Below are positions 25,184 to 39,390 of a stretch of 39,390 nt of DNA, one piece after another (position 1 is the stretch's first letter; each line of letters starts with the position of its first letter). Under the pieces are notes generated by a model. That model was not told the origin of the DNA, made no database searches, and saw nothing but the letters and a program-made list of their open reading frames with translations. A program made the position numbers and the translations under genes. The stretch is from NCBI GenBank assembly GCA_017882165.1, contig JADGPZ010000010.1, positions 1 to 39,390 on the forward strand, in the 5' to 3' direction. This stretch comes from Candidatus Kapaibacterium sp. Lineage in GTDB: Bacteria > Bacteroidota > Ignavibacteria > Palsa-1295.

Positions 25184-27409
25184 CTATTTTCTCGCGGCGA
25201 CGCCATTGACCTTTAGCTCAATCGCCGATAGCCGCACCTGCAACAGGGCGTTCGCTTTCCGCAATTCTTCGATCGTCTGCTCTTGCTCCTGGACGGCCTT
25301 CACTAATGGCGTGATGAGATCGCCGTACCGGAGATGATAGAGATCGTGCTCGTTCGCCGGACGCTCGACTCCGCTGAAGTTGTAGCCGGCATCTTTCGCC
25401 GCCTGCTCGACTTCCTGCGCCAGGAACCCGCTATAGACGATCTTCTCGACATCGTGTTTGCCGGGATACTCGGGCATATCGCGCTCGCCGGTGATTGCCC
25501 TCTCCTTGGCAAGATTCAGGCGATACGTAATTGGTCGCAACCGAAGGATAAATGGCAGTCCGCTGACATCCTCGGTAATGTCATCCTTTACGCGCGCATC
25601 GCTCAACGCGGAAATACTCTGAACATTACACTGGAGAGAGGTAATGTTGAGATTTCCCAGCACAATGGTGTTGCTTCCGGTCACAGTCGCCCCATAGCCG
25701 AGCGCGGTTACATTGGAAAAGCTGTATGAGTTAACGTCTGCGCTATATCCAATCGCAGTGTTATAACTTCCTGTCGTGTTGGTCCAGAGTGCACCACTAC
25801 CAATCGCAGTGTTATTATTTCCTGTCGTGTTGGAAGCGAGCGCCCGGAACCCACTGGCGGTGTTGCTGTTTCCCGTGGTGTTGAACTTGAGTGCCCGGAC
25901 TCCACTGGCGACATTGTCGTATCCCGTCGTGTTGGAAGTGAGTGCCTCGACTCCACTGGCGACATTAGATTGTCCCGTCGTGTTGGAATAGAGCGCGTAA
26001 CCGCCGAAAGCCGTATTCTCGTAACCGGATGTATTGAAATAGAGTGCATCGGCACCGGTGGCCGTATTGGAGAAGCCCGTCGTGTTGGCAAAGAGCGCAA
26101 GATAGCCGCTCGCGGTGTTATTCGCACCCGTTGTGTTCCGATAGAGCGATTGTTGGCCGCTGGCCGTATTGTTCATTCCAGTGGTGTTAAAAGCGAGAGC
26201 TTGATTGCCACTGGCGGTATTCGCGTTTCCCGTCGTGTTGGAATAGAGCGCCCAGAGCCCACTGGCCGTGTTCCCATTTCCCGTCGTGTTGGAATAGAGC
26301 GCATCGACCCCGCTCGCGGTATTGTAGTATCCCGTCGTGTTGGAAAGGAGAGCATTGAGCCCACTGGCCATATTCAGGTAGCCCGTCGTGTTGGAAAAGA
26401 GCGTGCTATCGCCGAGAGCCGTATTCCCATAGCCGGATGTGTTTGAAAAGAGCGCCTTGAACCCTATGGCGGAGTTGCCGTATCCCGTATTGCTCCCCAG
26501 TATCCCGAACCCAAAACCGGTATTCGTGCCGCTGCTTCCGATCTGGATTAACCCTGACTGGATATTATTCGCCCGAAATTGCAGGTCATTCGCGTCCGTC
26601 GTACCGATAAAGTCGGTGCCCGGTGTCGTGCCACTATTTCCAGCAAGCGACCATCCGGCCGAACCGGATGCGGGCGTCTGCCATCCGGATCCGCCGGAGC
26701 CGTTCGCCGTAAGGATCTGTCCGTTCGTTGCCAAACCGGAGCCGATCTTGCTACTCGTGACCGCACCATCGGCGATCATTCCATTCTTGATGCCGCTATT
26801 CTGCACGTTGATCGTAGCCGTGGCAGCACTGACAATCGATAAGGCACCGTCCGTATTCTGGATACTTGTGATGGTGCCACCACTGCCACCCGACGCGTTG
26901 ATGGTAATCGTCCCGTTCGGGTTCGCATTAACAGAGGCCCCATTGGCGCCTTGCAACGTGAGGGTGCCGCTCAGTCCGTTGACCGAGGTTACCGCGTTGA
27001 TCCCGTTGAGTGCGACCGACCGCGCGAAACTCGCCGTGTCCGCGAAGAAGGCCGAAGCCACGTCCACAAGCCGGGAGCGTGGCGTGAGTTCCGCCGAGCC
27101 ATCGACTTGCACGCCGAGCCAATGAGGACTCCCTGCTGTAAAGGCGAGCGGCGAGAGGTTACTGACCTTGCCGATGAGCACATCGAACACGCCATTCGTA
27201 AACGTGACGGTCTGCGTCTCAGTGAAGATTGCCGTGCCGCCGCTCGCTGTCATGTAGAGACTCATGGTCAGCGAGTGCGGCCCGCTGAGCGCGGCACCAT
27301 TCGTGATGGTGCCTTGATAGGAGATCATGCGCTGGGCATCCGCGCCCGATGCCAAAAACAGCGTCAGAAAGATACTGGTCAGTAGGGAAACACGGAAAGA
27401 TGGATGCAT
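25184..27409 (-). CDS. Self-cleaving surface fibre protein: ISYQG module, 17-residue repeats, S74 chaperone
   Basis: I chose the ATG at 27409 because it begins a signal peptide (MHPSFRVSLLTSIFLTLFLASGADAQ); the frame extends 30 codons upstream. The product is 741 residues. Order: ISYQG module (~27-130; MISYQGTITNG, NGVFDVLIGK, PHWLGVQVDG), a spacer with tail-fibre-like motifs (GQILTANGSGGSGWQTP), fourteen full 17-residue repeats of NTASGxxALYSNTTGxx plus one degenerate unit, then a peptidase S74 domain from SDARVKDDI (Ser603, Lys608) with SGFLAQEVEQAAK and a terminal coiled coil (VKAVQEQEQTIEELRKANAL). In phage tailspikes this domain trimerises the fibre and cuts itself off before the serine. 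A trimeric, self-processed surface adhesin or fibre is inferred. Confidence 0.88.
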   Translation of the reverse strand: MHPSFRVSLLTSIFLTLFLASGADAQRMISYQGTITNGAALSGPHSLTMSLYMTASGGTAIFTETQTVTFTNGVFDVLIGKVSNLSPLAFTAGSPHWLGVQVDGSAELTPRSRLVDVASAFFADTASFARSVALNGINAVTSVNGLSGTLTLQGANGASVNANPNGTITINASGGSGGTITSIQNTDGALSIVSAATATINVQNSGIKNGMIADGAVTSSKIGSGLATNGQILTANGSGGSGWQTPASGSAGWSLAGNSGTTPGTDFIGTTDANDLQFRANNIQSGLIQIGSSGTNTGFGFGILGSNTGYGNSAIGFKALFSNTSGYGNTALGDSTLFSNTTGYLNMASGLNALLSNTTGYYNTASGVDALYSNTTGNGNTASGLWALYSNTTGNANTASGNQALAFNTTGMNNTASGQQSLYRNTTGANNTASGYLALFANTTGFSNTATGADALYFNTSGYENTAFGGYALYSNTTGQSNVASGVEALTSNTTGYDNVASGVRALKFNTTGNSNTASGFRALASNTTGNNNTAIGSGALWTNTTGSYNTAIGYSADVNSYSFSNVTALGYGATVTGSNTIVLGNLNITSLQCNVQSISALSDARVKDDITEDVSGLPFILRLRPITYRLNLAKERAITGERDMPEYPGKHDVEKIVYSGFLAQEVEQAAKDAGYNFSGVERPANEHDLYHLRYGDLITPLVKAVQEQEQTIEELRKANALLQVRLSAIELKVNGVAARK
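25712..26476 (-). repeat. Fifteen 51-bp tandem repeats in the fibre gene
   Basis: The block is 765 bp, an exact multiple of 51. Fourteen units code the 17-residue pattern N(T/V)ASGxxAL(Y/F)xNTTGxx; the fifteenth (NTAIGYSADVNSYSFSN) is degenerate. The pattern resembles the beta-roll head repeats of trimeric autotransporter adhesins. Unit-to-unit DNA similarity is high (recurrent ...CCCGTCGTGTTGGAA... on the plus strand), so the copy number may vary between strains. Confidence 0.9.
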
Positions 27410-27757
27410 AACATACCTGCTGGATTGTGGGAAATGGAAAAACCATCCACCTTTGCGCGGATACCCCGAATCCGACCCATTCCGGTATGGAACCGGCACT
27501 ATCGCGGATCGAGATGCCGCAACGAGACGGACGACGACGGATGATCTCCAGTCCTATTGGGGATTATCCGAACAGGTATGAGTAACCTGCTACCACAAAG
27601 TTACGCAACTTTTTCGGGCCTACGGCGAAAGTGGAAGTCTGATGGACTATTGTGGAATTCCTCGCGTTCCTTTTGTTAACCGACTCGGATATTTCTAACG
27701 TCAAGATAACAACCCAACTTGCCAGCACCACATTCGCCCGATGATTACTCCGCCTGG
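27410..27757. other. Intergenic region between divergent genes
   Basis: 348 bp separates the fibre gene (-) from the unknown gene (+). A possible -7 box TAACTTTG on the minus strand is listed separately. For the plus-strand gene I see no convincing TTG/TAnnTTTG pair. An in-frame TTG start at 27719 would shorten this region by 39 bp. Nothing else was recognised. Confidence 0.5.
27596..27603 (-). promoter_or_regulatory. Possible -7 box TAACTTTG for the fibre gene
   Basis: Exact TAnnTTTG match on the minus strand, in the context TTGCGTAACTTTG. It lies about 187 nt upstream of the chosen ATG, so the leader would be long. No TTG is found at the usual -33 distance. Confidence 0.3.
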
Positions 27758-30833: not shown

Positions 30834-32966
30834 TCAGCGCGCCGTGACGCTGACCCGTATGCTAAGTCTCGATTCCGTGCCATTCGCATCGAACGCCTTG
30901 ATCGCATACGTATAGGAGGCCTCGCGCGTCACAACATGGTCAACGAACTGGCTTGCGCCATCCGCGATGGTTGTGTACTGCTCCACCGGCTTATCTCCCA
31001 TCCCGCGATAAAGGATTAGTCGCAACGGGTTGATCGAAGGGTTTGTCCATGTCAGTTGCATCGCACGGCCACTATCAATTGCGACGACACGGAGATCGCG
31101 GACGCCATCGATGAGCGAACGGCGATACGGCCTTGCTGTCACTGTTCCCGAGAACTTCGAGTGATTGCCGGTCGTGTCGATCGCCTGCATCGCGTATTCG
31201 TATGCCGTGTTCTGCGTGACTTTGGTATCGGTGGCGCGCTTGGCGGCCGCGTTCATTTCACTCGCTGTCATCCATGCACCGGAGCCTTCACGGCGCAGCA
31301 GCACTTGGGTGCGAACATCTTTGCTCGAAGATGGGATGAAGTCGATTGTCACACTGGTGTCGGTAACAGTCGCGCCCGTAATGACTGGTGGCACCGGCGG
31401 AATAATATCCGGCCTCGGCACAGCGAGAATCGCGGAAAGGGGCGACTCGTTGTAATTCCGGTCGAGCGCGAGGGCGCGGTAATAGACAAACGGCGTGAGC
31501 GAGACGAGCGTGACGGTATCGCTGTACGTTGTTCGGCGCGCTTCCGGTACTTCAGGATCGACATAGGATTCCTGAATCGCGGAGAACTCGTGCTCGGGCG
31601 CATTCGCGCGCAGCAGGCGGTAGCCCATCAGGTCGCGCTCTGTGTTGCCTTTCAGCTTCAGTGTGACGATGCCATTCGTATCCATCGTGCCGCTAAGCCA
31701 TGTCGGCGCGATAGGTGGCGTCGTATCCATCAGCGGCGCATAGGCGGGAAAGGAGCGGCTCATGTTTCGCGCCGTGTCGAACGCCTCGATCACATAGTAG
31801 TTATGAACGGTGTCGGAGAAATGTGTGTCGGTAAATGTTCGGGTGCTTGGCGGAAGCGTCTGCGAAATTGGATCGAACTTACCAGAATCACTCTCGCCGC
31901 GCAAGACGCGAAATCCTTTGAGATCTCCGGCGACCGGTTCGGCCATTTCCCATGTGACCTCTATCGCGTGGTCCGAAATCTGTTTCGGATTGCTGATGAG
32001 CGGCATCCCCGGCGGCGTGAGATCGCGGCCCATGGCGTGCGCTTCGCCAACGACTTCCAGATCGGCAAACGAAGTCGTTCCGGCAATCCGATAGATGTAT
32101 GGACGATAATTGATAATTGTTGTGTCGAGGTAACTCTCGCTGTCGGTCGCCTTCAATGCCGATTGCCGAATCGTAATCAGCGGATACCGATTCAGCCGTT
32201 TGAACGTCTTGCCACCATCTTCGCTGCGGCTCACGATGTAGGAGCCAAGCTTCGGCGACGCCGGCCAGTTGAGCGAGATTGTGCGGTCACCTTCGACGGG
32301 CGTAATCGTCTTCCGCGAGAGCGCTTTGTCGTAAGGGACGTTCTCAATCGTAATGCTCCCGCTATCGGCATGATAGATCGCGAGCTGCCGTGCAAGGCGA
32401 ACACGATAGGTGTAGCGCACACCTCGCTGGACATTGTGATCCACGAAGCGAAGGCCGAGACCTTCGGCAGCTTCCGCGTCGCGGTCGGCGGCGATAAGCG
32501 CGAAGCTTCGGCTCATGTCGAGCGAAGCTTGCTTCTGGCTGATTTCTTTCTCGTCCTCGATGCCTGACTGCAATGCCACGCCAGCCTGTGTGGAATCGTA
32601 CAACAGGCTGTATGCGATCTGCGTGTAGTCAATGGCTGAATCCTCGGTCGTAGATGCCTCTCGTGGTGTCAGAAACTTCACCCACCGCTCGCGTGGCCAC
32701 GGCTTGATCAGTGTTCCAATTTGCGAGAAGCTCTTCTCCCCTGCCACCGACCGCTCGATTACGTAGCCGGACTCGTTCGCGCCGAGCCACAACGCCGTGT
32801 TCGATGGCCCCCAGCGGATAATGATGGAGTCGCCCATCGCCCGCGCCGTCACGCCAATATGCGCCGCTAACGGATCGCCCTCAGCCTCTGCTTGCGCATG
32901 AGCAATGGGAACGCGCGCGAGTGAGAAAACAAGTAGCGCGAATAAAATCAGATAAGATTGTTTCAT
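30834..32966 (-). CDS. Secreted fibronectin type III repeat protein
   Basis: The 710-residue product has a signal peptide (MKQSYLILFALLVFSLARVPIAHAQ). Most of it consists of about six fibronectin-III-like units, recognisable by G-Y-x-I/V-x-R strands (SGYVIERS, GSYIVSRSEDGGKTF, GFRVLRGESDSGKF, GYRLLRANAPEHEF, VLLRREGSG, LILYRGMGD) and YxYxVxAxD ends (YRALALDRNYNESP, YEYAMQAIDTTGNHS, YTYAIKAFDANGTES). No T9SS sorting domain is present. It is the last gene of the three-gene unit, starting 9 bp after the stop of the giant protein gene, so it is most likely co-expressed with it. A scaffold or carbohydrate/protein binding role is inferred; no enzyme domain is seen. Confidence 0.85.
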   Translation of the reverse strand: MKQSYLILFALLVFSLARVPIAHAQAEAEGDPLAAHIGVTARAMGDSIIIRWGPSNTALWLGANESGYVIERSVAGEKSFSQIGTLIKPWPRERWVKFLTPREASTTEDSAIDYTQIAYSLLYDSTQAGVALQSGIEDEKEISQKQASLDMSRSFALIAADRDAEAAEGLGLRFVDHNVQRGVRYTYRVRLARQLAIYHADSGSITIENVPYDKALSRKTITPVEGDRTISLNWPASPKLGSYIVSRSEDGGKTFKRLNRYPLITIRQSALKATDSESYLDTTIINYRPYIYRIAGTTSFADLEVVGEAHAMGRDLTPPGMPLISNPKQISDHAIEVTWEMAEPVAGDLKGFRVLRGESDSGKFDPISQTLPPSTRTFTDTHFSDTVHNYYVIEAFDTARNMSRSFPAYAPLMDTTPPIAPTWLSGTMDTNGIVTLKLKGNTERDLMGYRLLRANAPEHEFSAIQESYVDPEVPEARRTTYSDTVTLVSLTPFVYYRALALDRNYNESPLSAILAVPRPDIIPPVPPVITGATVTDTSVTIDFIPSSSKDVRTQVLLRREGSGAWMTASEMNAAAKRATDTKVTQNTAYEYAMQAIDTTGNHSKFSGTVTARPYRRSLIDGVRDLRVVAIDSGRAMQLTWTNPSINPLRLILYRGMGDKPVEQYTTIADGASQFVDHVVTREASYTYAIKAFDANGTESRLSIRVSVTAR

Positions 32967-32975
32967 AAGCGCGCC

Positions 32976-35900
32976 TTAGTGGAAGTTCAAGTTTTGGTTC
33001 GTTGCGAAGTATGGACCGGACCGCTTCGAAGTATTGAAGTAGGAGGTGCGTACCTGCGTGACGAACGTGTTGTTTCTCTTCTTGGCCTGCACCCATGCAT
33101 TATTCACCAACTCCCAGAGTTGGCCTGTGATGCTGAGTTTGAAGTGCGTCGAGTCTTGCAGTGCCGGGATGGGCGCGTGGTTCATTGGCACCGGCTGGTT
33201 TCCCGGCACGATGCGGTAATATTCATATTGTCCCATCACGTTCGGCTGCGGCATGCAGGCCAGTATGATTTGCGTAGGTGGACCCGGGAGGGCAACCGCA
33301 TGCTGCCCGCCCAATTGGACATTGTATCCTCCCACTTGTCCACCGTGCGGGCCTGGCGGCGGCGGTGCGGGGTCGTTTTGATTGCGGAGGTTCTGGTTAC
33401 CCATGTTGACCGGCGGAATCGGCTGGGGAAGTCCACTCAGCGAGTCGATCTGCACGGTGTAGCGTGCCTGGAAGGTGCGGTACTTCAGCGAGCCATCGGT
33501 CTGACGCTCCTGCACATCGAACGCCTGGTTCGGCGTGAATCCAAAGAGCACGCGCACGGTGCGGTCCGAAGGAATATTTGTCGCGTTATTATCAGGATCG
33601 GCGTTGATGACAAGCGTGCCCGCCTGATCCGCTGCGGCATCTTCCTGCGTGTAGACGACTGCTGGGTCAGCCGGAGGCTGTGGCTCGCATGGTGTGCCAA
33701 CGTCGACATTCACCGTGAAGCTGCCGGAGACAAGCCCATCGAGCACATTGTACGTGCCCGAGGCAAACCCAGTGACCCATGTCGGATTCGGGAATCCCGC
33801 CGTCACCCACGCACCGGCCTTAAATGAGGCAAGCGTGAAATCACATCCGTTCGGATGATTATGATGACAGCACCAAAAACAAGGATCATCCCACGTTCCG
33901 GTCTTCGGAGCGATATGCAGATTCGCCCAACAGTAGCACCACGCCGCGACTCCGCCGTGAATGTACCAGCCGCGCATTCCGATGGGCGAGGTGCCGCCAC
34001 AGGAAACATTGTTGGCATACTTCAGTAGCGAGAGATCGATTTCGAATCCCGCGCCCGCGCCATATTGCAAGTGCAGCCGTCCGCAAAGATCGAAATCCTT
34101 TGTCCCCGTATTGGCTGATACCGAGAGTCCCATCGCGAACCCAGTGCCGGAATGCGCCTGGTTCGAGATCGAGACGTTGGGCGTTGTCCAGACTCCGACG
34201 TTGTGCAACTCGTTGTTCGTGTTATCCATGAATCCGGTCGGCGGGTTGATGTCGTTGCCGAACATGAGATACTCCGAGCAGTTGATCGCATTGAGCACCG
34301 TGATCGTGTTCAGGTGCGTCGGCTCGCCAAGTTTAAAGTACCATTTGTTTTGCTTCGCATCGACGTGAAGGTGCAGCGCAATGTTATTGCCGCGGACTGC
34401 ATCGCCGCTCGCAACCGGATACTTGAATGTGATCGCTGCCGATAGATCGAAAATCTTATCTGGCGGAACATAACTCACAACAGCCGATCCATACACCGGC
34501 GCGTTCGCACGATCTGTCAACTCTGCGGCAGCCCAGACGTTGAGAGCGAACGAGATGCTCGCCAGTCCACCGCTCTGGCTGAACTGGCCGGAGAGTGTCG
34601 CATCGGCATTGAATGTTTTCGGCGTTGGGCTGGTCCCGATCACACCGACCACTTTGAGTCCGAACGAGATCGTATGGTCCGGCGTGTAAGTCGCGCCGGA
34701 TGCCGTGTCGGATGTCGACGCGTTGGCGTTCGCAATCGTCACGGGCGAGATGGCTGGGAAGTTCGCGACATTCATGTGACTCCACGCGCCTAAGCCGCCA
34801 CCATAGAGCGCGAAACCGGTGAAGATCGGAATTCCGGCGGATGGCGGTAGAATAACTTTTGCGTCAACATACCAGTAACGGAACGTCGTGTTGTTGTTTT
34901 GGTATGCCGTCGAGCCAAACTGCAATCGAGAGGTGATCTGAAGCTTGATCGAGTTGAATGTGGCCTGGATCGTTCCTTTATAGCCCGTGCCATAGGTGGG
35001 GTCTCCGCTATAAAGATGGACGCTTCCATCCAAAGTCACTGCCGCAAGGTGCGCATAAATCGAAATGTCGCTCACCGTCATGCCCTTGTATGCGGGTACG
35101 AACTTGCCATTCGGTTTCGAGATTGCACCAATCACCTCCATCGTCGCCTTGCCGCCGATCTTGTTTTGGTCGAGATTGACGATGACCGTGAATTGCAGTC
35201 CACCTCGCAGTATTTCACCAGGCTGCTTCGTCTCACTGACGTAGCCAATCTTATCGATCGTAATTGGGAAGCCGTGCATCGACTTCGACGGGCTGGCAAA
35301 GGCCCACGTGCCCGGACTAAAGTTGAACACGTTCGAACTCACGTCGTAGCCCATCGTGAGATCCTCGAAGGACATCCCCATCGTCACATCTTTAACCGGC
35401 CCGATGTTCGCGTGCGCCCACTCGAAATCACCGGAGAGGTCCAGATCGAATCGAGTCGAGCCATTGATCTTGAGAGAGAGCGTGGACGTGGGCGCGAGCG
35501 TGAAGGTAGCATCGTGCCAGAGCTTCGCCGTGATTGGTCCGGAAGGATACAGCGCGAAGGTAAAGCCGCTATCCGAGCTGAAGAGTGCTTTGTAGTTGAT
35601 CGCGTTCGGCTCCGTGGTATCCGTCACCGGCAAAACGATGCGGCCCAGGATGGCCGCTTCCGTGACCGATCCATTCAGCAGGATGAGTCTCGCGGTGTCG
35701 ATACTCGCGCCGAGATTCGAGACATTCAACCTCGGGAAATTCAGAATATTGTCAGCGCGGATGGTCCCCGTCAGGCCATCATGATTCAGAATCAGGTTCG
35801 CTGTGCTGATATTAATCTTCTGATTCGGATTGTCGAACGAGCGAAGTTTGTCCGGCAACGAGAGCATGGCGTACTTGATGTAAAAGCCTCGGAACGTCAT

Positions 35901-37961
35901 GTCCGAATCGCCGGAGCAGTTATCCGGAAAGACGATGCCGGTCGGATTGCGGGTGTCGGAGTGATCGTAAGCCATCTGGCTAACATTCAGCTCCGCGCCA
36001 TTGGTGTGGGCGATGGTGCAAGACCCAAGCGTCGCGTTGATGATCCAGTCATTCCAATCCGTTATGACGGTGCTGAAGAGCGAGTGGACTCGCTTCGTCG
36101 GATCGGGATCGGGCAGCGGCACGAGCCACGAACGTGGATAGGCAACATCGATCGCAACCGAAAGCTGCCGGAAGCCATCGCAATCCCACTCGACAAACGT
36201 CCCGCTCGTCGTGTCCATCGCTTTGATGGTGATGACGTAAGTATTGCTTGGATTGATGTTGCCCGTGATCACCTGATCTTCGAGCAAGCCAAGCTTGCCA
36301 GCAGTCGTCTTCGGGCCAGACGGTGTGCATGGCACATCCTCTGCTTTGAATCCGAGCGTATCATTCGCGTCTGGAATGGGAAACGCTGCAACGGCCACCA
36401 GTTCGGCGCCCGTCGGTGTGAACTTCATCTCCGAAATCGCAACCGTGTAGCCCTTGAGATTATTGATGCCGAGCGGCAGCTTCAGCGGCGTGTTCGTCGC
36501 ATTCGCAACTTGTGTGTTCAAATCGAGATTGCCGACCTGCTTCGAGAAGTTCGCGTGGAGCCAGGTATTCAGCTTCTTGACGAGCGACTTTGTCCACGAG
36601 ATATTGCCGACAATATTCAGTCCCCATTTTTTGGGAAGCGCGTCGGGCGTGGCTTCGAGTTGCGTGGTCACTTCGCCGGCATAGACGCGATTGAGCGAAT
36701 CAACACTGAGATTCGTAAACTCGACCGCGATGGGCGTATGCAACCATGTCACGAGAATGGAGCCAGTCCCAACGAGCGTGGTCGTTGTGCCACTCGCGGT
36801 CAGGATCTTCATCGGGAAGGAGCCAACCGTAACCATGCTATCGACGTAGCTCGCGGCGGTGCGCGAGGCTGGACTTGGATTCACAATGACCGGCGGTGGC
36901 GGAGCGTTCGAGCACGCGCTCGCAGGCGGCTGCGGGTTACCAGCGCCAAAATTAACCGGCGGGATAATATGCGGAGCCTCAAAGTTGCCACCAAGCGGTT
37001 GTCCGGGTGATATGGAGTCCTGTCGAGCCAGTAGATGGGGCGCCGGTGGCGGAGGCGGATTCGCTATGCGACCATTCGGTTCACCGCCTCCCATTTGTCT
37101 GCCTCCCGCCATTTGGTTTGTGTCGGCCATCCGATACGCCGGCGGCGTGACCGTGAAGGTAAACGGCTGCGCGTATCCATCGGGATCGCCGACTGGATTG
37201 CCCTGATCGTCGAGCGAGCGGACGGTCCAGATATATTGCGGCACGCGGCCCGGAAGGTCGGTATTCAGTGGCCAGAGGAGTTGTGTCACGCCCGTGACTG
37301 TGCTGTTCAGAATCGGTTGATTGCCGCGATAGGCTTGCATCGGCTGCTGACCGGGCATGACTTCAAACACGAGAACTTGGTACCGCACGCCGTACGGCGG
37401 CTGCGGCGAGAGTGCCGTCCAGCGCAGCGTTGGCCGCTGCGATTGCGTCAGCGCGGATTGATCGAGTGGCAGTAGGAGCGACGGAACTTGATACGATGTG
37501 AGGAAAAACGGCTTGCATATTTCCGTGCCGATCAGGCTCTGCGAGCCGGCAGGATTGAGGATGTCCACGCAAAAGCTGTAATTACCTCCCGGAAGCTGGC
37601 CTGTTTGCACGGCGGTGGTGCGTGCGGTGCCGAGGAAGTCGACGTAGTTGAACGGGATCATGTCCTCGGCATTCCATGTCGAGACGCCCGGCGGGAATGT
37701 CAAGACCGTCATGTTCGCCGTTTTCGTTCGCGCCACCACGTTTCCATCCTTGCTCACTTCAACCTTAAATTTGCCCTGAGTGCTCGCACCCGTGTTCGTC
37801 ACCACAATCGTCGCCGTTGCCTGACGGCGTGCCCAGTTTGCAAGATAGGGATCGGGGCGCGGCGAGACGGTCAGAACCGCGCGAAGCGTTTGAGCATCCG
37901 CGCCGAACGACACTAAGAAGAGACATGCGAGTGCTGCCGCAAGAGTGACGATCCGTTTCAT
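32976..37961 (-). CDS. Giant secreted protein with TANFOR-like N-terminus (1661 residues)
   Basis: I chose the ATG at 37961, which begins a clear signal peptide (MKRIVTLAAALACLFLVSFGADAQ) and lies 20 bp after the upstream gene's stop; the open frame extends 50 codons further. Residues ~25-155 (LRAVLTVSPRPDPYLANWA, VVTNTGAST, LPGGNYSFCVDILNP, EICKPFFLTSY) resemble the TANFOR domain of Bacteroidota surface proteins. A fibronectin/Ig-like unit (~160-270) and a proline-rich stretch (~285-360) follow. Then come about 1000 residues of beta-strand-rich sequence with repeated lipocalin- or barrel-like strand patterns that I cannot assign. A Cys/His cluster lies near residues 1339-1373, and a second proline-rich linker precedes the C-terminal domain. 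There is no T9SS sorting domain. Function unknown. Confidence 0.85.
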   Translation of the reverse strand: MKRIVTLAAALACLFLVSFGADAQTLRAVLTVSPRPDPYLANWARRQATATIVVTNTGASTQGKFKVEVSKDGNVVARTKTANMTVLTFPPGVSTWNAEDMIPFNYVDFLGTARTTAVQTGQLPGGNYSFCVDILNPAGSQSLIGTEICKPFFLTSYQVPSLLLPLDQSALTQSQRPTLRWTALSPQPPYGVRYQVLVFEVMPGQQPMQAYRGNQPILNSTVTGVTQLLWPLNTDLPGRVPQYIWTVRSLDDQGNPVGDPDGYAQPFTFTVTPPAYRMADTNQMAGGRQMGGGEPNGRIANPPPPPAPHLLARQDSISPGQPLGGNFEAPHIIPPVNFGAGNPQPPASACSNAPPPPVIVNPSPASRTAASYVDSMVTVGSFPMKILTASGTTTTLVGTGSILVTWLHTPIAVEFTNLSVDSLNRVYAGEVTTQLEATPDALPKKWGLNIVGNISWTKSLVKKLNTWLHANFSKQVGNLDLNTQVANATNTPLKLPLGINNLKGYTVAISEMKFTPTGAELVAVAAFPIPDANDTLGFKAEDVPCTPSGPKTTAGKLGLLEDQVITGNINPSNTYVITIKAMDTTSGTFVEWDCDGFRQLSVAIDVAYPRSWLVPLPDPDPTKRVHSLFSTVITDWNDWIINATLGSCTIAHTNGAELNVSQMAYDHSDTRNPTGIVFPDNCSGDSDMTFRGFYIKYAMLSLPDKLRSFDNPNQKINISTANLILNHDGLTGTIRADNILNFPRLNVSNLGASIDTARLILLNGSVTEAAILGRIVLPVTDTTEPNAINYKALFSSDSGFTFALYPSGPITAKLWHDATFTLAPTSTLSLKINGSTRFDLDLSGDFEWAHANIGPVKDVTMGMSFEDLTMGYDVSSNVFNFSPGTWAFASPSKSMHGFPITIDKIGYVSETKQPGEILRGGLQFTVIVNLDQNKIGGKATMEVIGAISKPNGKFVPAYKGMTVSDISIYAHLAAVTLDGSVHLYSGDPTYGTGYKGTIQATFNSIKLQITSRLQFGSTAYQNNNTTFRYWYVDAKVILPPSAGIPIFTGFALYGGGLGAWSHMNVANFPAISPVTIANANASTSDTASGATYTPDHTISFGLKVVGVIGTSPTPKTFNADATLSGQFSQSGGLASISFALNVWAAAELTDRANAPVYGSAVVSYVPPDKIFDLSAAITFKYPVASGDAVRGNNIALHLHVDAKQNKWYFKLGEPTHLNTITVLNAINCSEYLMFGNDINPPTGFMDNTNNELHNVGVWTTPNVSISNQAHSGTGFAMGLSVSANTGTKDFDLCGRLHLQYGAGAGFEIDLSLLKYANNVSCGGTSPIGMRGWYIHGGVAAWCYCWANLHIAPKTGTWDDPCFWCCHHNHPNGCDFTLASFKAGAWVTAGFPNPTWVTGFASGTYNVLDGLVSGSFTVNVDVGTPCEPQPPADPAVVYTQEDAAADQAGTLVINADPDNNATNIPSDRTVRVLFGFTPNQAFDVQERQTDGSLKYRTFQARYTVQIDSLSGLPQPIPPVNMGNQNLRNQNDPAPPPPGPHGGQVGGYNVQLGGQHAVALPGPPTQIILACMPQPNVMGQYEYYRIVPGNQPVPMNHAPIPALQDSTHFKLSITGQLWELVNNAWVQAKKRNNTFVTQVRTSYFNTSKRSGPYFATNQNLNFH

Positions 37962-37981
37962 AAGTGTCCCTTTCCCTTGTG

Positions 37982-39390
37982 TTAGAATTGTGCTCCGATC
38001 GAAGACTCGATTAGCGATTCGCGGAATGATTCGCCCGGCCTCGTTCCGCCATACGTAAATCCGGTGGTCGTGCCGGTAATCCGTAGCGTGAGTTGCTTTG
38101 CAATCTGCCATTTCAGGCCAATGCGGAGTTGCCGTTGGATGTCGGGGCTGAATGTTGTACTTGACGTCACAGTCGCGCCTTCGGAATAGGTCCCCTGCAC
38201 CATCGGCGTAAGTTTGCTCTCCAGAAGCGAGTAGTCCATCTCGAGTGTGATCGAATTGATAGTCAGGTCACCAGTCGCAGGAAGATGGTTGAGCAGGTTC
38301 GACGCGATGAGTGTCGTAGATAGTGGGATGGCCGTCCAGGACGCTGAGTATAATGCCTGGATATTCCGCGTGTTGTTCGAAGCCAGCGCGCCGGTAACCG
38401 TGTTGTAATCGTTAAACTCATCGAGCGAGAAGGTCGCGCTGATGCTGTGTGTGCCAGAACTGCCGGTAAGCACATAAGTCGGTGTGACCGAAAAGGAGTT
38501 TGCGACGCTTTGAATCTTGAGCGTGTCGTTCGTCTCGGAATTCCGGACGCCAAAGTTTGCGAACTGCCCGCTGATCGAGAACTTGTCGCTGAATGTCGCA
38601 AGCGCCGTTGCAGAACCAATGATTTGCGTTGAGGTCGCGGCCTTCGTCTGGCTCAGATTATTCACGCGATACCCGAGCGAAGTATTGAGCGCAAGGCCAC
38701 CATCGAAGAGCGCAATGCGCGGCGCGACGAGGAATTCCAGCCGGTCGGGTGTGAGAAATGGATAGCCGGGCGTGACGAATCCCGCGCCGATATACTTGCC
38801 GCTCGTCTTGATGCCCCACGTCTTATTCTTCCAGTCGATTGCAAGCGTTCCGGCAACATCAGCGCGGGTTGAAATTCGTTGTGCCAGAATGGATGATGGC
38901 AGGATTCCTCCAAGGTCGGCGGGCGCTGCATTGACATCCATTGTGAAACCGGAGACGGCAGCTTCGCCCGTAAGTCGCAGTGGATCAGCAATCTGCACGG
39001 CGAAGTTCGCGCTTGCGAGCGCACCTTCCTGCGGAACGGGGAAGGTCGAATCGTTCAAGGGCCGTGCGATCGAACTGGGATCGTCCTTCATCCGAACGAA
39101 ATTGAGTGCGAAGCAACTGGAATCGGGATTGCCAAAGCCGATCTTCGCCATGTAGAGCGTTCGCGCGTATGCGCCTTTGATGCCATGCGCGGAATCCGGC
39201 TCGATGGCGCGCTGCGCGATACCGGTGGATGCCGCCAGTTCGAACTTGCCGGGCGTGAGATCGAAGCCGCCGCCGAAGATTTGCTGGTCGCCCGTCGATA
39301 GCTCGGAGTACATCGGTGTGTGCGTGCCAATATATGCTTTCGCCCATCCGATCTTCGGCGAGATGTTGATGAAGCCGAGATTGTTCAGCG
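37982..39390 (-). CDS. Outer-membrane beta-barrel-like protein (5' end outside window)
   Basis: The frame is open through the right edge; the ATG at 39313 is internal, and the 25 codons before it (FINISPKIGWAKAYIGTH) continue the same pattern. The ~470 visible residues are alternating hydrophobic strands such as IFGGGFDLTPGKFELAAS, WGIKTSGKYIGAGFVTPGYP and LALNTSLGYRVNNLS, and the protein ends in an aromatic C-terminal strand (IESSIGAQF), as in outer-membrane barrels. It resembles a Bacteroidota family with the motif YS(E/K)xxxGxxxFGAGxxLxPGxF that I recall near large TANFOR-type genes. It is the first gene seen of the three-gene unit and might be a secretion or anchoring barrel for the giant protein; that role is inferred. 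Confidence 0.78.
   Translation of the reverse strand, partial: LNNLGFINISPKIGWAKAYIGTHTPMYSELSTGDQQIFGGGFDLTPGKFELAASTGIAQRAIEPDSAHGIKGAYARTLYMAKIGFGNPDSSCFALNFVRMKDDPSSIARPLNDSTFPVPQEGALASANFAVQIADPLRLTGEAAVSGFTMDVNAAPADLGGILPSSILAQRISTRADVAGTLAIDWKNKTWGIKTSGKYIGAGFVTPGYPFLTPDRLEFLVAPRIALFDGGLALNTSLGYRVNNLSQTKAATSTQIIGSATALATFSDKFSISGQFANFGVRNSETNDTLKIQSVANSFSVTPTYVLTGSSGTHSISATFSLDEFNDYNTVTGALASNNTRNIQALYSASWTAIPLSTTLIASNLLNHLPATGDLTINSITLEMDYSLLESKLTPMVQGTYSEGATVTSSTTFSPDIQRQLRIGLKWQIAKQLTLRITGTTTGFTYGGTRPGESFRESLIESSIGAQF

What the first reader, a model, noticed from the sequence alone, without database searches (positions are those of the whole stretch)
30834..39390. Three-gene surface unit: outer-membrane barrel, 1661-residue TANFOR-like protein, fibronectin-III protein
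The three genes are on one strand with gaps of 20 and 9 bp. All have export features, but none of the visible C-termini has a T9SS sorting domain, unlike five other secreted proteins here. The order barrel, giant, scaffold suggests a dedicated export or display system whose function is not described to my knowledge. It is the strongest candidate for an unnoticed system in the window.
Basis: partly seen in the sequence, partly recalled or inferred. Interest (0 to 1): 0.72.

Follow-up and report, generated by a model that had tools for sequence, protein, structure and literature searches.

The report
Outer-membrane barrel, giant and Fn3 operon
Three neighbouring genes make an outer-membrane pore-like barrel, a giant secreted protein and a fibronectin-type scaffold; the trio is kept together across much of its bacterial phylum and looks like the core of a surface machine of which only the giant's relatives (TANFOR toxins) have been described so far.

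Summary
In detail: three minus-strand genes with 20- and 9-bp gaps (the barrel is cut by the contig end). It is a real, widespread operon. Of 50 giants with the same ~1050-residue core, 42 have the Fn3 gene, 38 the barrel and 33 both in the same operon, in about 20 genera and 13 families, including Chitinophagaceae. The giant's N-terminal ~260 residues are a divergent TANFOR domain: the window copy does not hit TIGR02542, but full-length relatives do (to 1e-10). TANFOR proteins were described in 2020 as polymorphic toxins with Fn3 and T9SS neighbours, so 'undescribed' is only partly right. This giant carries no recognisable toxin, no immunity gene follows it, and its C-terminal tail is conserved. 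Barrel, core and scaffold match no Pfam, NCBIfam or PDB family that would name them. In three families the TANFOR domain is fused directly to the barrel, so the barrel is probably its cognate outer-membrane partner. Some relatives encode core and TANFOR protein separately. I read this as a toxin-free display platform that works like, but is not, PorP/SprF with type B CTD proteins. Export route and structure remain open: both AlphaFold models failed.

The parts
37982..39388 (-). Outer-membrane beta-barrel protein, N-terminus cut by the contig end (468 of about 600 aa)
   Evidence: frame; family of 44; amphipathic alternation, C-terminal Phe; only weak, mostly barrel-type hits
32976..37961 (-). 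Giant secreted protein, 1661 aa: signal peptide, giN (divergent TANFOR), linker, core (giC), conserved tail
37890..37961 (-). Sec signal peptide of the giant (no lipobox)
   Evidence: read directly from the translation
37122..37889 (-). giN: two Ig-like domains, residues 25-280, divergent TANFOR; the part found fused to the barrel in L152, L153 and L165
   Evidence: most conserved part of the giant (93/91% to G001, dN/dS about 0.05)
33672..36896 (-). giC core, residues about 356-1430, all-beta, strongly amphipathic; a separate gene in some relatives (L146, L147)
32979..33671 (-). C-terminal tail (giCt), Ig-like; shared with Chitinophagaceae L032 and Balneolaceae L031
30834..32966 (-). Secreted protein of tandem fibronectin type III domains, 710 aa, no sorting domain

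Best explanation
The three genes encode one envelope complex: an outer-membrane barrel that binds the N-terminal giN (TANFOR-type) domain of the giant, the giant itself, and an Fn3 scaffold. All three cross the inner membrane by Sec (read from signal peptides; for the barrel from its relatives). The barrel then acts as the cognate outer-membrane receptor or anchor for giN and holds the giant at, and probably on the outside of, the outer membrane, with the Fn3 protein as extracellular scaffold (inferred). The same platform carries interchangeable cargo: the core fused to giN as here, other long beta-rich regions, or, in flavobacteria-like loci, a separate TANFOR protein followed by a small gene without a signal peptide. 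The window version is a toxin-free display form. It works like the PorP/SprF barrel with its adjacent type B CTD giant, but with an N-terminal barrel-binding domain instead of a C-terminal one. Shown: operon, conservation, fusion, cargo switching, no CTD, no recognisable toxin. Inferred: direct binding, surface location, export route (most likely the T9SS SprA translocon, since no genome sampled has the barrel without SprA).
For: Operon kept: 33 of 50 core giants have both partners on the same strand within 400 bp, only 3 have neither (maps). Starting instead from barrels without a core giant, 10 of 14 have a giN gene beside them. giN and barrel occur as one protein in L152, L153 and L165, from three families, one clade. 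giN is the most conserved part of the giant and has a conserved Cys pair. Barrel tree: core and non-core cargo interleave, at least 13 changes. In L146/L147 core and giN are separate genes of the same operon. No CTD in the window proteins and no toxin family in 54 giant C-termini. SprA in 33 of 33 core-positive and 131 of 131 barrel-positive genomes against 228 of 296 overall. Analogy: PorP/SprF pairs (PMC9143113, PMC12618676).
Against: No structure: both AlphaFold models are unusable (pLDDT 28 and 31), so binding and even the number of strands are untested. The fusion seems to have one origin, not three. An N-terminal domain on a barrel normally lies in the periplasm, which could mean that giN, or the whole giant, stays in the periplasm. 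The SprA correlation is confounded by phylogeny: most of the SprA-negative genomes that were listed belong to one family. Four of the 14 extra barrels have no giN gene nearby.
Confidence: 0.5

Rival explanations
1. It is a TANFOR polymorphic toxin locus: the giant is a toxin whose C-terminus is an unrecognised toxin domain.
For: giN is a divergent TANFOR domain, the class named as toxins in PMC7073777; flavobacteria-like relatives have the TANFOR giant followed by a small gene without a signal peptide.
Against: No toxin family in the C-terminus of the window giant or of 53 relatives; the next gene, 9 bp on, is a secreted Fn3 protein, not an immunity-like gene; the C-terminal tail is recognisable from this class to Chitinophagaceae (22-42%), whereas polymorphic toxin tips are exchanged; some core giants end at the core with no tail (L079, L080).
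Confidence: 0.15
2. The barrel is itself the exporter: a two-partner-like route in which giN docks on the periplasmic side and the rest of the giant passes through the barrel, independent of T9SS.
For: Adjacent dedicated barrel; giN-barrel fusions with giN N-terminal, i.e. probably periplasmic; no CTD; N-terminal trafficking domain with variable C-terminus fits this geometry.
Against: No POTRA or other two-partner exporter family in the barrels; no barrel found without SprA in the genome; core and Fn3 would be folded cargo of great length.
Confidence: 0.2
3. It is a surface sensor: the barrel passes a signal from the giant across the outer membrane, as its relatives in FecR/CHASE2-cyclase operons probably do.
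For: Divergent relatives of the barrel sit next to CHASE2-cyclase genes in 5 of 5 loci sampled, with FecR found in 3, and pair with giN/Fn3-like proteins in 3; homology confirmed with a profile of window-type barrels only, none of 285 decoys matching.
Against: The cyclase-type barrels form their own clade and no recurrent FecR or cyclase gene was found near window-type operons; the own genome shows no second barrel hit.
Confidence: 0.1

Closest known systems
TANFOR-domain polymorphic toxins of Bacteroidetes (Jana et al. 2020, PMC7073777; TIGR02542)
   Same: Large Sec-exported protein with a TANFOR-type N-terminus, Fn3-rich neighbour, genome with T9SS; flavobacteria-like relatives of this operon reproduce the published neighbourhood (Fn3, SprB-repeat CTD protein, TANFOR giant).
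   Different: Window giant does not hit TIGR02542, has no recognisable toxin, no immunity gene and no CTD neighbour in the operon; it is fused to a core module, and comes with a barrel that is not among the enriched neighbours listed in the 2020 paper.
PorP/SprF barrels with their adjacent type B CTD giants (T9SS; PMC9143113, PMC12618676)
   Same: A dedicated outer-membrane barrel encoded beside a giant secreted protein, probably its anchor or shuttle.
   Different: No PorP/SprF family match in 44 barrels, no CTD on the giant; the link here is an N-terminal domain.
FecR - CHASE2 signalling operons (e.g. Burkholderia, PMC5192318)
   Same: A divergent clade of the barrel family lies in FecR / CHASE2-cyclase operons.
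   Different: The published operon has a histidine kinase and no barrel; the window operon has neither FecR nor CHASE2.

Membership tests
TANFOR polymorphic toxins | TIGR02542 match over the curated cut-off of 67 bits | tested here: not met
   No hit in the window giant at E<=1; relatives that share the core reach 41-43 bits, below cut-off; homology is transitive only.
TANFOR polymorphic toxins | C-terminal toxin domain | tested here: not met
   Pfam on the last 650 residues of the window giant: none; none in 53 relatives; NCBIfam none. An unknown toxin fold cannot be excluded.
TANFOR polymorphic toxins | Immunity gene downstream | tested here: not met
   Next gene is the secreted Fn3 protein, 9 bp on.
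TANFOR polymorphic toxins | Sec signal peptide and Fn3-domain neighbour in a T9SS genome | tested here: met
   Signal peptide by inspection; Fn3 neighbour; SprA in G000 and at least 150 CTD matches.
PorP/SprF barrel with type B CTD substrate | Barrel matches the PorP/SprF family | tested here: not met
   44 barrels against NCBIfam and Pfam at E<=0.01: no PorP/SprF.
PorP/SprF barrel with type B CTD substrate | CTD at the giant's C-terminus | tested here: not met
   No CTD family at E<=1.
Two-partner secretion (TpsA/TpsB) | POTRA domains and ShlB-type barrel; TPS domain on the exoprotein | tested here: not met
   No such Pfam family in barrel or giant; the window barrel's own N-terminus is missing, relatives were used.
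Outer-membrane beta-barrel | Closed barrel structure | tested here: inconclusive
   Sequence signs are positive, the AlphaFold model is unusable.

The most novel reading that the evidence does not exclude
The barrel is the missing outer-membrane receptor of the TANFOR N-terminal domain: one phylum-wide barrel family recognises this N-terminal signal and exports or displays giant cargo (toxins in some species, structural or adhesive giants in others), defining a second, N-terminal targeting route beside the CTD route; a side branch of the same barrels reports to CHASE2 cyclases.
Probability: 0.3. Interest if true: 0.82.

Novelty: new variant of a known kind. Interest (0 to 1): 0.58.

Why it matters
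How TANFOR proteins leave the cell is open; the 2020 paper could only suggest T9SS. This operon offers a specific candidate, an adjacent barrel that is fused to the TANFOR-type domain in some species, and makes the question testable with one deletion. It also shows that most of the apparatus (barrel, core, scaffold) belongs to families absent from Pfam and NCBIfam although it is common in the phylum.

Tried and rejected
Structure prediction of barrel and core: pLDDT 28 and 31 because only two or three sequences were allowed in the alignment; no fold search was run on such models. Viral contigs hold no relative of the core. Profile search of core, giN and barrel against the PDB: nothing usable; the Fn3 protein hits only generic Fn3 chains. 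The exoglucanase and MXAN_2561 hits of the Fn3 protein are far below cut-off and reflect Fn3 domains. Promoter and terminator patterns are at chance level; no Rfam match. Considered three independent giN-barrel fusions: rejected, the three form one clade.

Full report
Observation. The window is a complete contig, so the barrel lacks its N-terminus; the nearest orthologue, in a genome of the same genus (G001), has a frame of 598 residues. Giant and Fn3 protein start with plain Sec signal peptides. None of the three matches a T9SS sorting domain at E<=1. The genome is rich in T9SS substrates (at least 150 matches to TIGR04183) and encodes SprA.

Is it a unit? Relatives were sought with each protein separately, then with a profile of the giant's core over 296 genomes of the phylum. 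Regions around the giants were fetched and mapped (maps). Of 50 giants with the core, 42 have the Fn3 gene, 38 the barrel and 33 both on the same strand within 400 bp; three have neither. The usual order is barrel, giant, Fn3; some families have giant, Fn3, barrel (L078, L079, L080, L032). Distribution is patchy: of seven genomes of the window's genus only two have it, and around the fetched G001 copy no flanking gene matches a window flank as an orthologue, so it behaves as an accessory locus.

What the giant is. It has a signal peptide, a ~260-residue N-terminal region of two Ig-like domains (giN) with a conserved Cys pair, a variable linker, a ~1050-residue core (alignment A1) and a ~230-residue tail. 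TIGR02542 (TANFOR) does not hit the window giant, but it hits the same region of giants that share the core, for instance G032 at 1e-10, G023 at 3e-10 and G041 at 5e-10, all below the 67-bit cut-off. giN is therefore a divergent TANFOR domain. TANFOR proteins are described in one paper of the library (PMC7073777) as polymorphic toxins of Bacteroidetes, most with a Sec signal, in neighbourhoods enriched in Fn3, SprB repeats and CTDs. Loci here from flavobacteria-like genomes reproduce that picture: Fn3 protein, SprB-repeat CTD protein, TANFOR giant, then a small gene without a signal peptide (L103; similar parts in L141, L142). In L146 and L147 the core stands alone as a ~1100-residue gene between barrel and Fn3, and the TANFOR giant follows as a separate gene. 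In the window both are one chain.

Is it a toxin? Pfam finds no toxin family in the last 650 residues of the window giant or of 53 relatives. The tail is recognisable in Chitinophagaceae and Balneolaceae, and no immunity-like gene follows. This version is most likely not a toxin; an unknown fold remains possible.

The barrel. 44 relatives share the terminal Phe (30 of 44) and a strong alternation of hydrophobic residues (z = 4.9 against shuffles), with about 22 candidate strands in the truncated window copy; weak database hits are nearly all outer-membrane or porin-type barrels. No PorP/SprF or POTRA match. In L152, L153 and L165 one protein carries signal peptide, giN and barrel in that order; L152 and L153 have in addition a separate giN-core giant and Fn3 gene in the same operon. 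The three fusions form one clade, drawn from three families. Among 14 barrels fetched outside the core loci, 10 have a giN protein next to them. On the barrel tree core and non-core cargo interleave (at least 13 changes), so the barrel is the constant and the cargo the variable part.

Mechanism. The best reading is that giN is the domain by which the giant is held by its barrel. Which side of the membrane this happens on is not known. The PorP/SprF analogy (PMC9143113, PMC12618676) suggests the outside, with T9SS as exporter; the order giN-barrel in the fusions suggests the periplasmic side, which would fit passage through the barrel. All 131 barrel-positive genomes are SprA-positive against 228 of 296 overall (the lists were compared by eye), but most of the SprA-negative genomes that were listed belong to one family, so this is weak evidence.

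Limits. The two structure predictions failed for lack of alignment depth. Taxon names of most genomes are withheld; 'flavobacteria-like' is a description of gene content, not a name given by a tool. The counts of loci are not corrected for relatedness beyond naming genera and families.

Noticed in passing
L161 1628-4042, L162 1645-4164, L163 2015-4744, L164 1425-3821, L166 1723-4491: Divergent relatives of the window barrel (800-920 aa, Ig-like N-terminus) lie next to CHASE2 + adenylate/guanylate cyclase genes in 5 of 5 loci, with a FecR gene found in 3 and giN/Fn3-like genes upstream in 3; often one such barrel per genome. No paper found that links a barrel to FecR/CHASE2.
   Followed up: partly
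L152 1-2353, L153 1357-4407, L165 1623-4310: Natural giN-barrel fusions; L152 and L153 carry an insert of short tandem repeats (ISKDKLKGETEDETTG; KKISPGTREGDT..) between the two Ig domains of giN.
   Followed up: partly
L142 11276-11782, L103 12954-13733, L146 18068-18784: Small proteins without signal peptide directly after TANFOR giants in other families, candidates for immunity proteins of unrecognised toxins.
   Followed up: no
L144 10197-12653, L142 17608-19500: Barrels of flavobacteria-like genomes carry an extra ~250-residue, probably helical C-terminal region, which could reach into the periplasm.
   Followed up: no
L032 18767-19600, L062 10963-11865, L177 10697-11566: Stand-alone giN proteins of 277-300 aa encoded beside the barrel.
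   Followed up: no
window 25184-27499: 771-aa protein with an endosialidase-chaperone domain (Peptidase_S74, Pfam 7.8e-8), two genes away from the operon.
   Followed up: no
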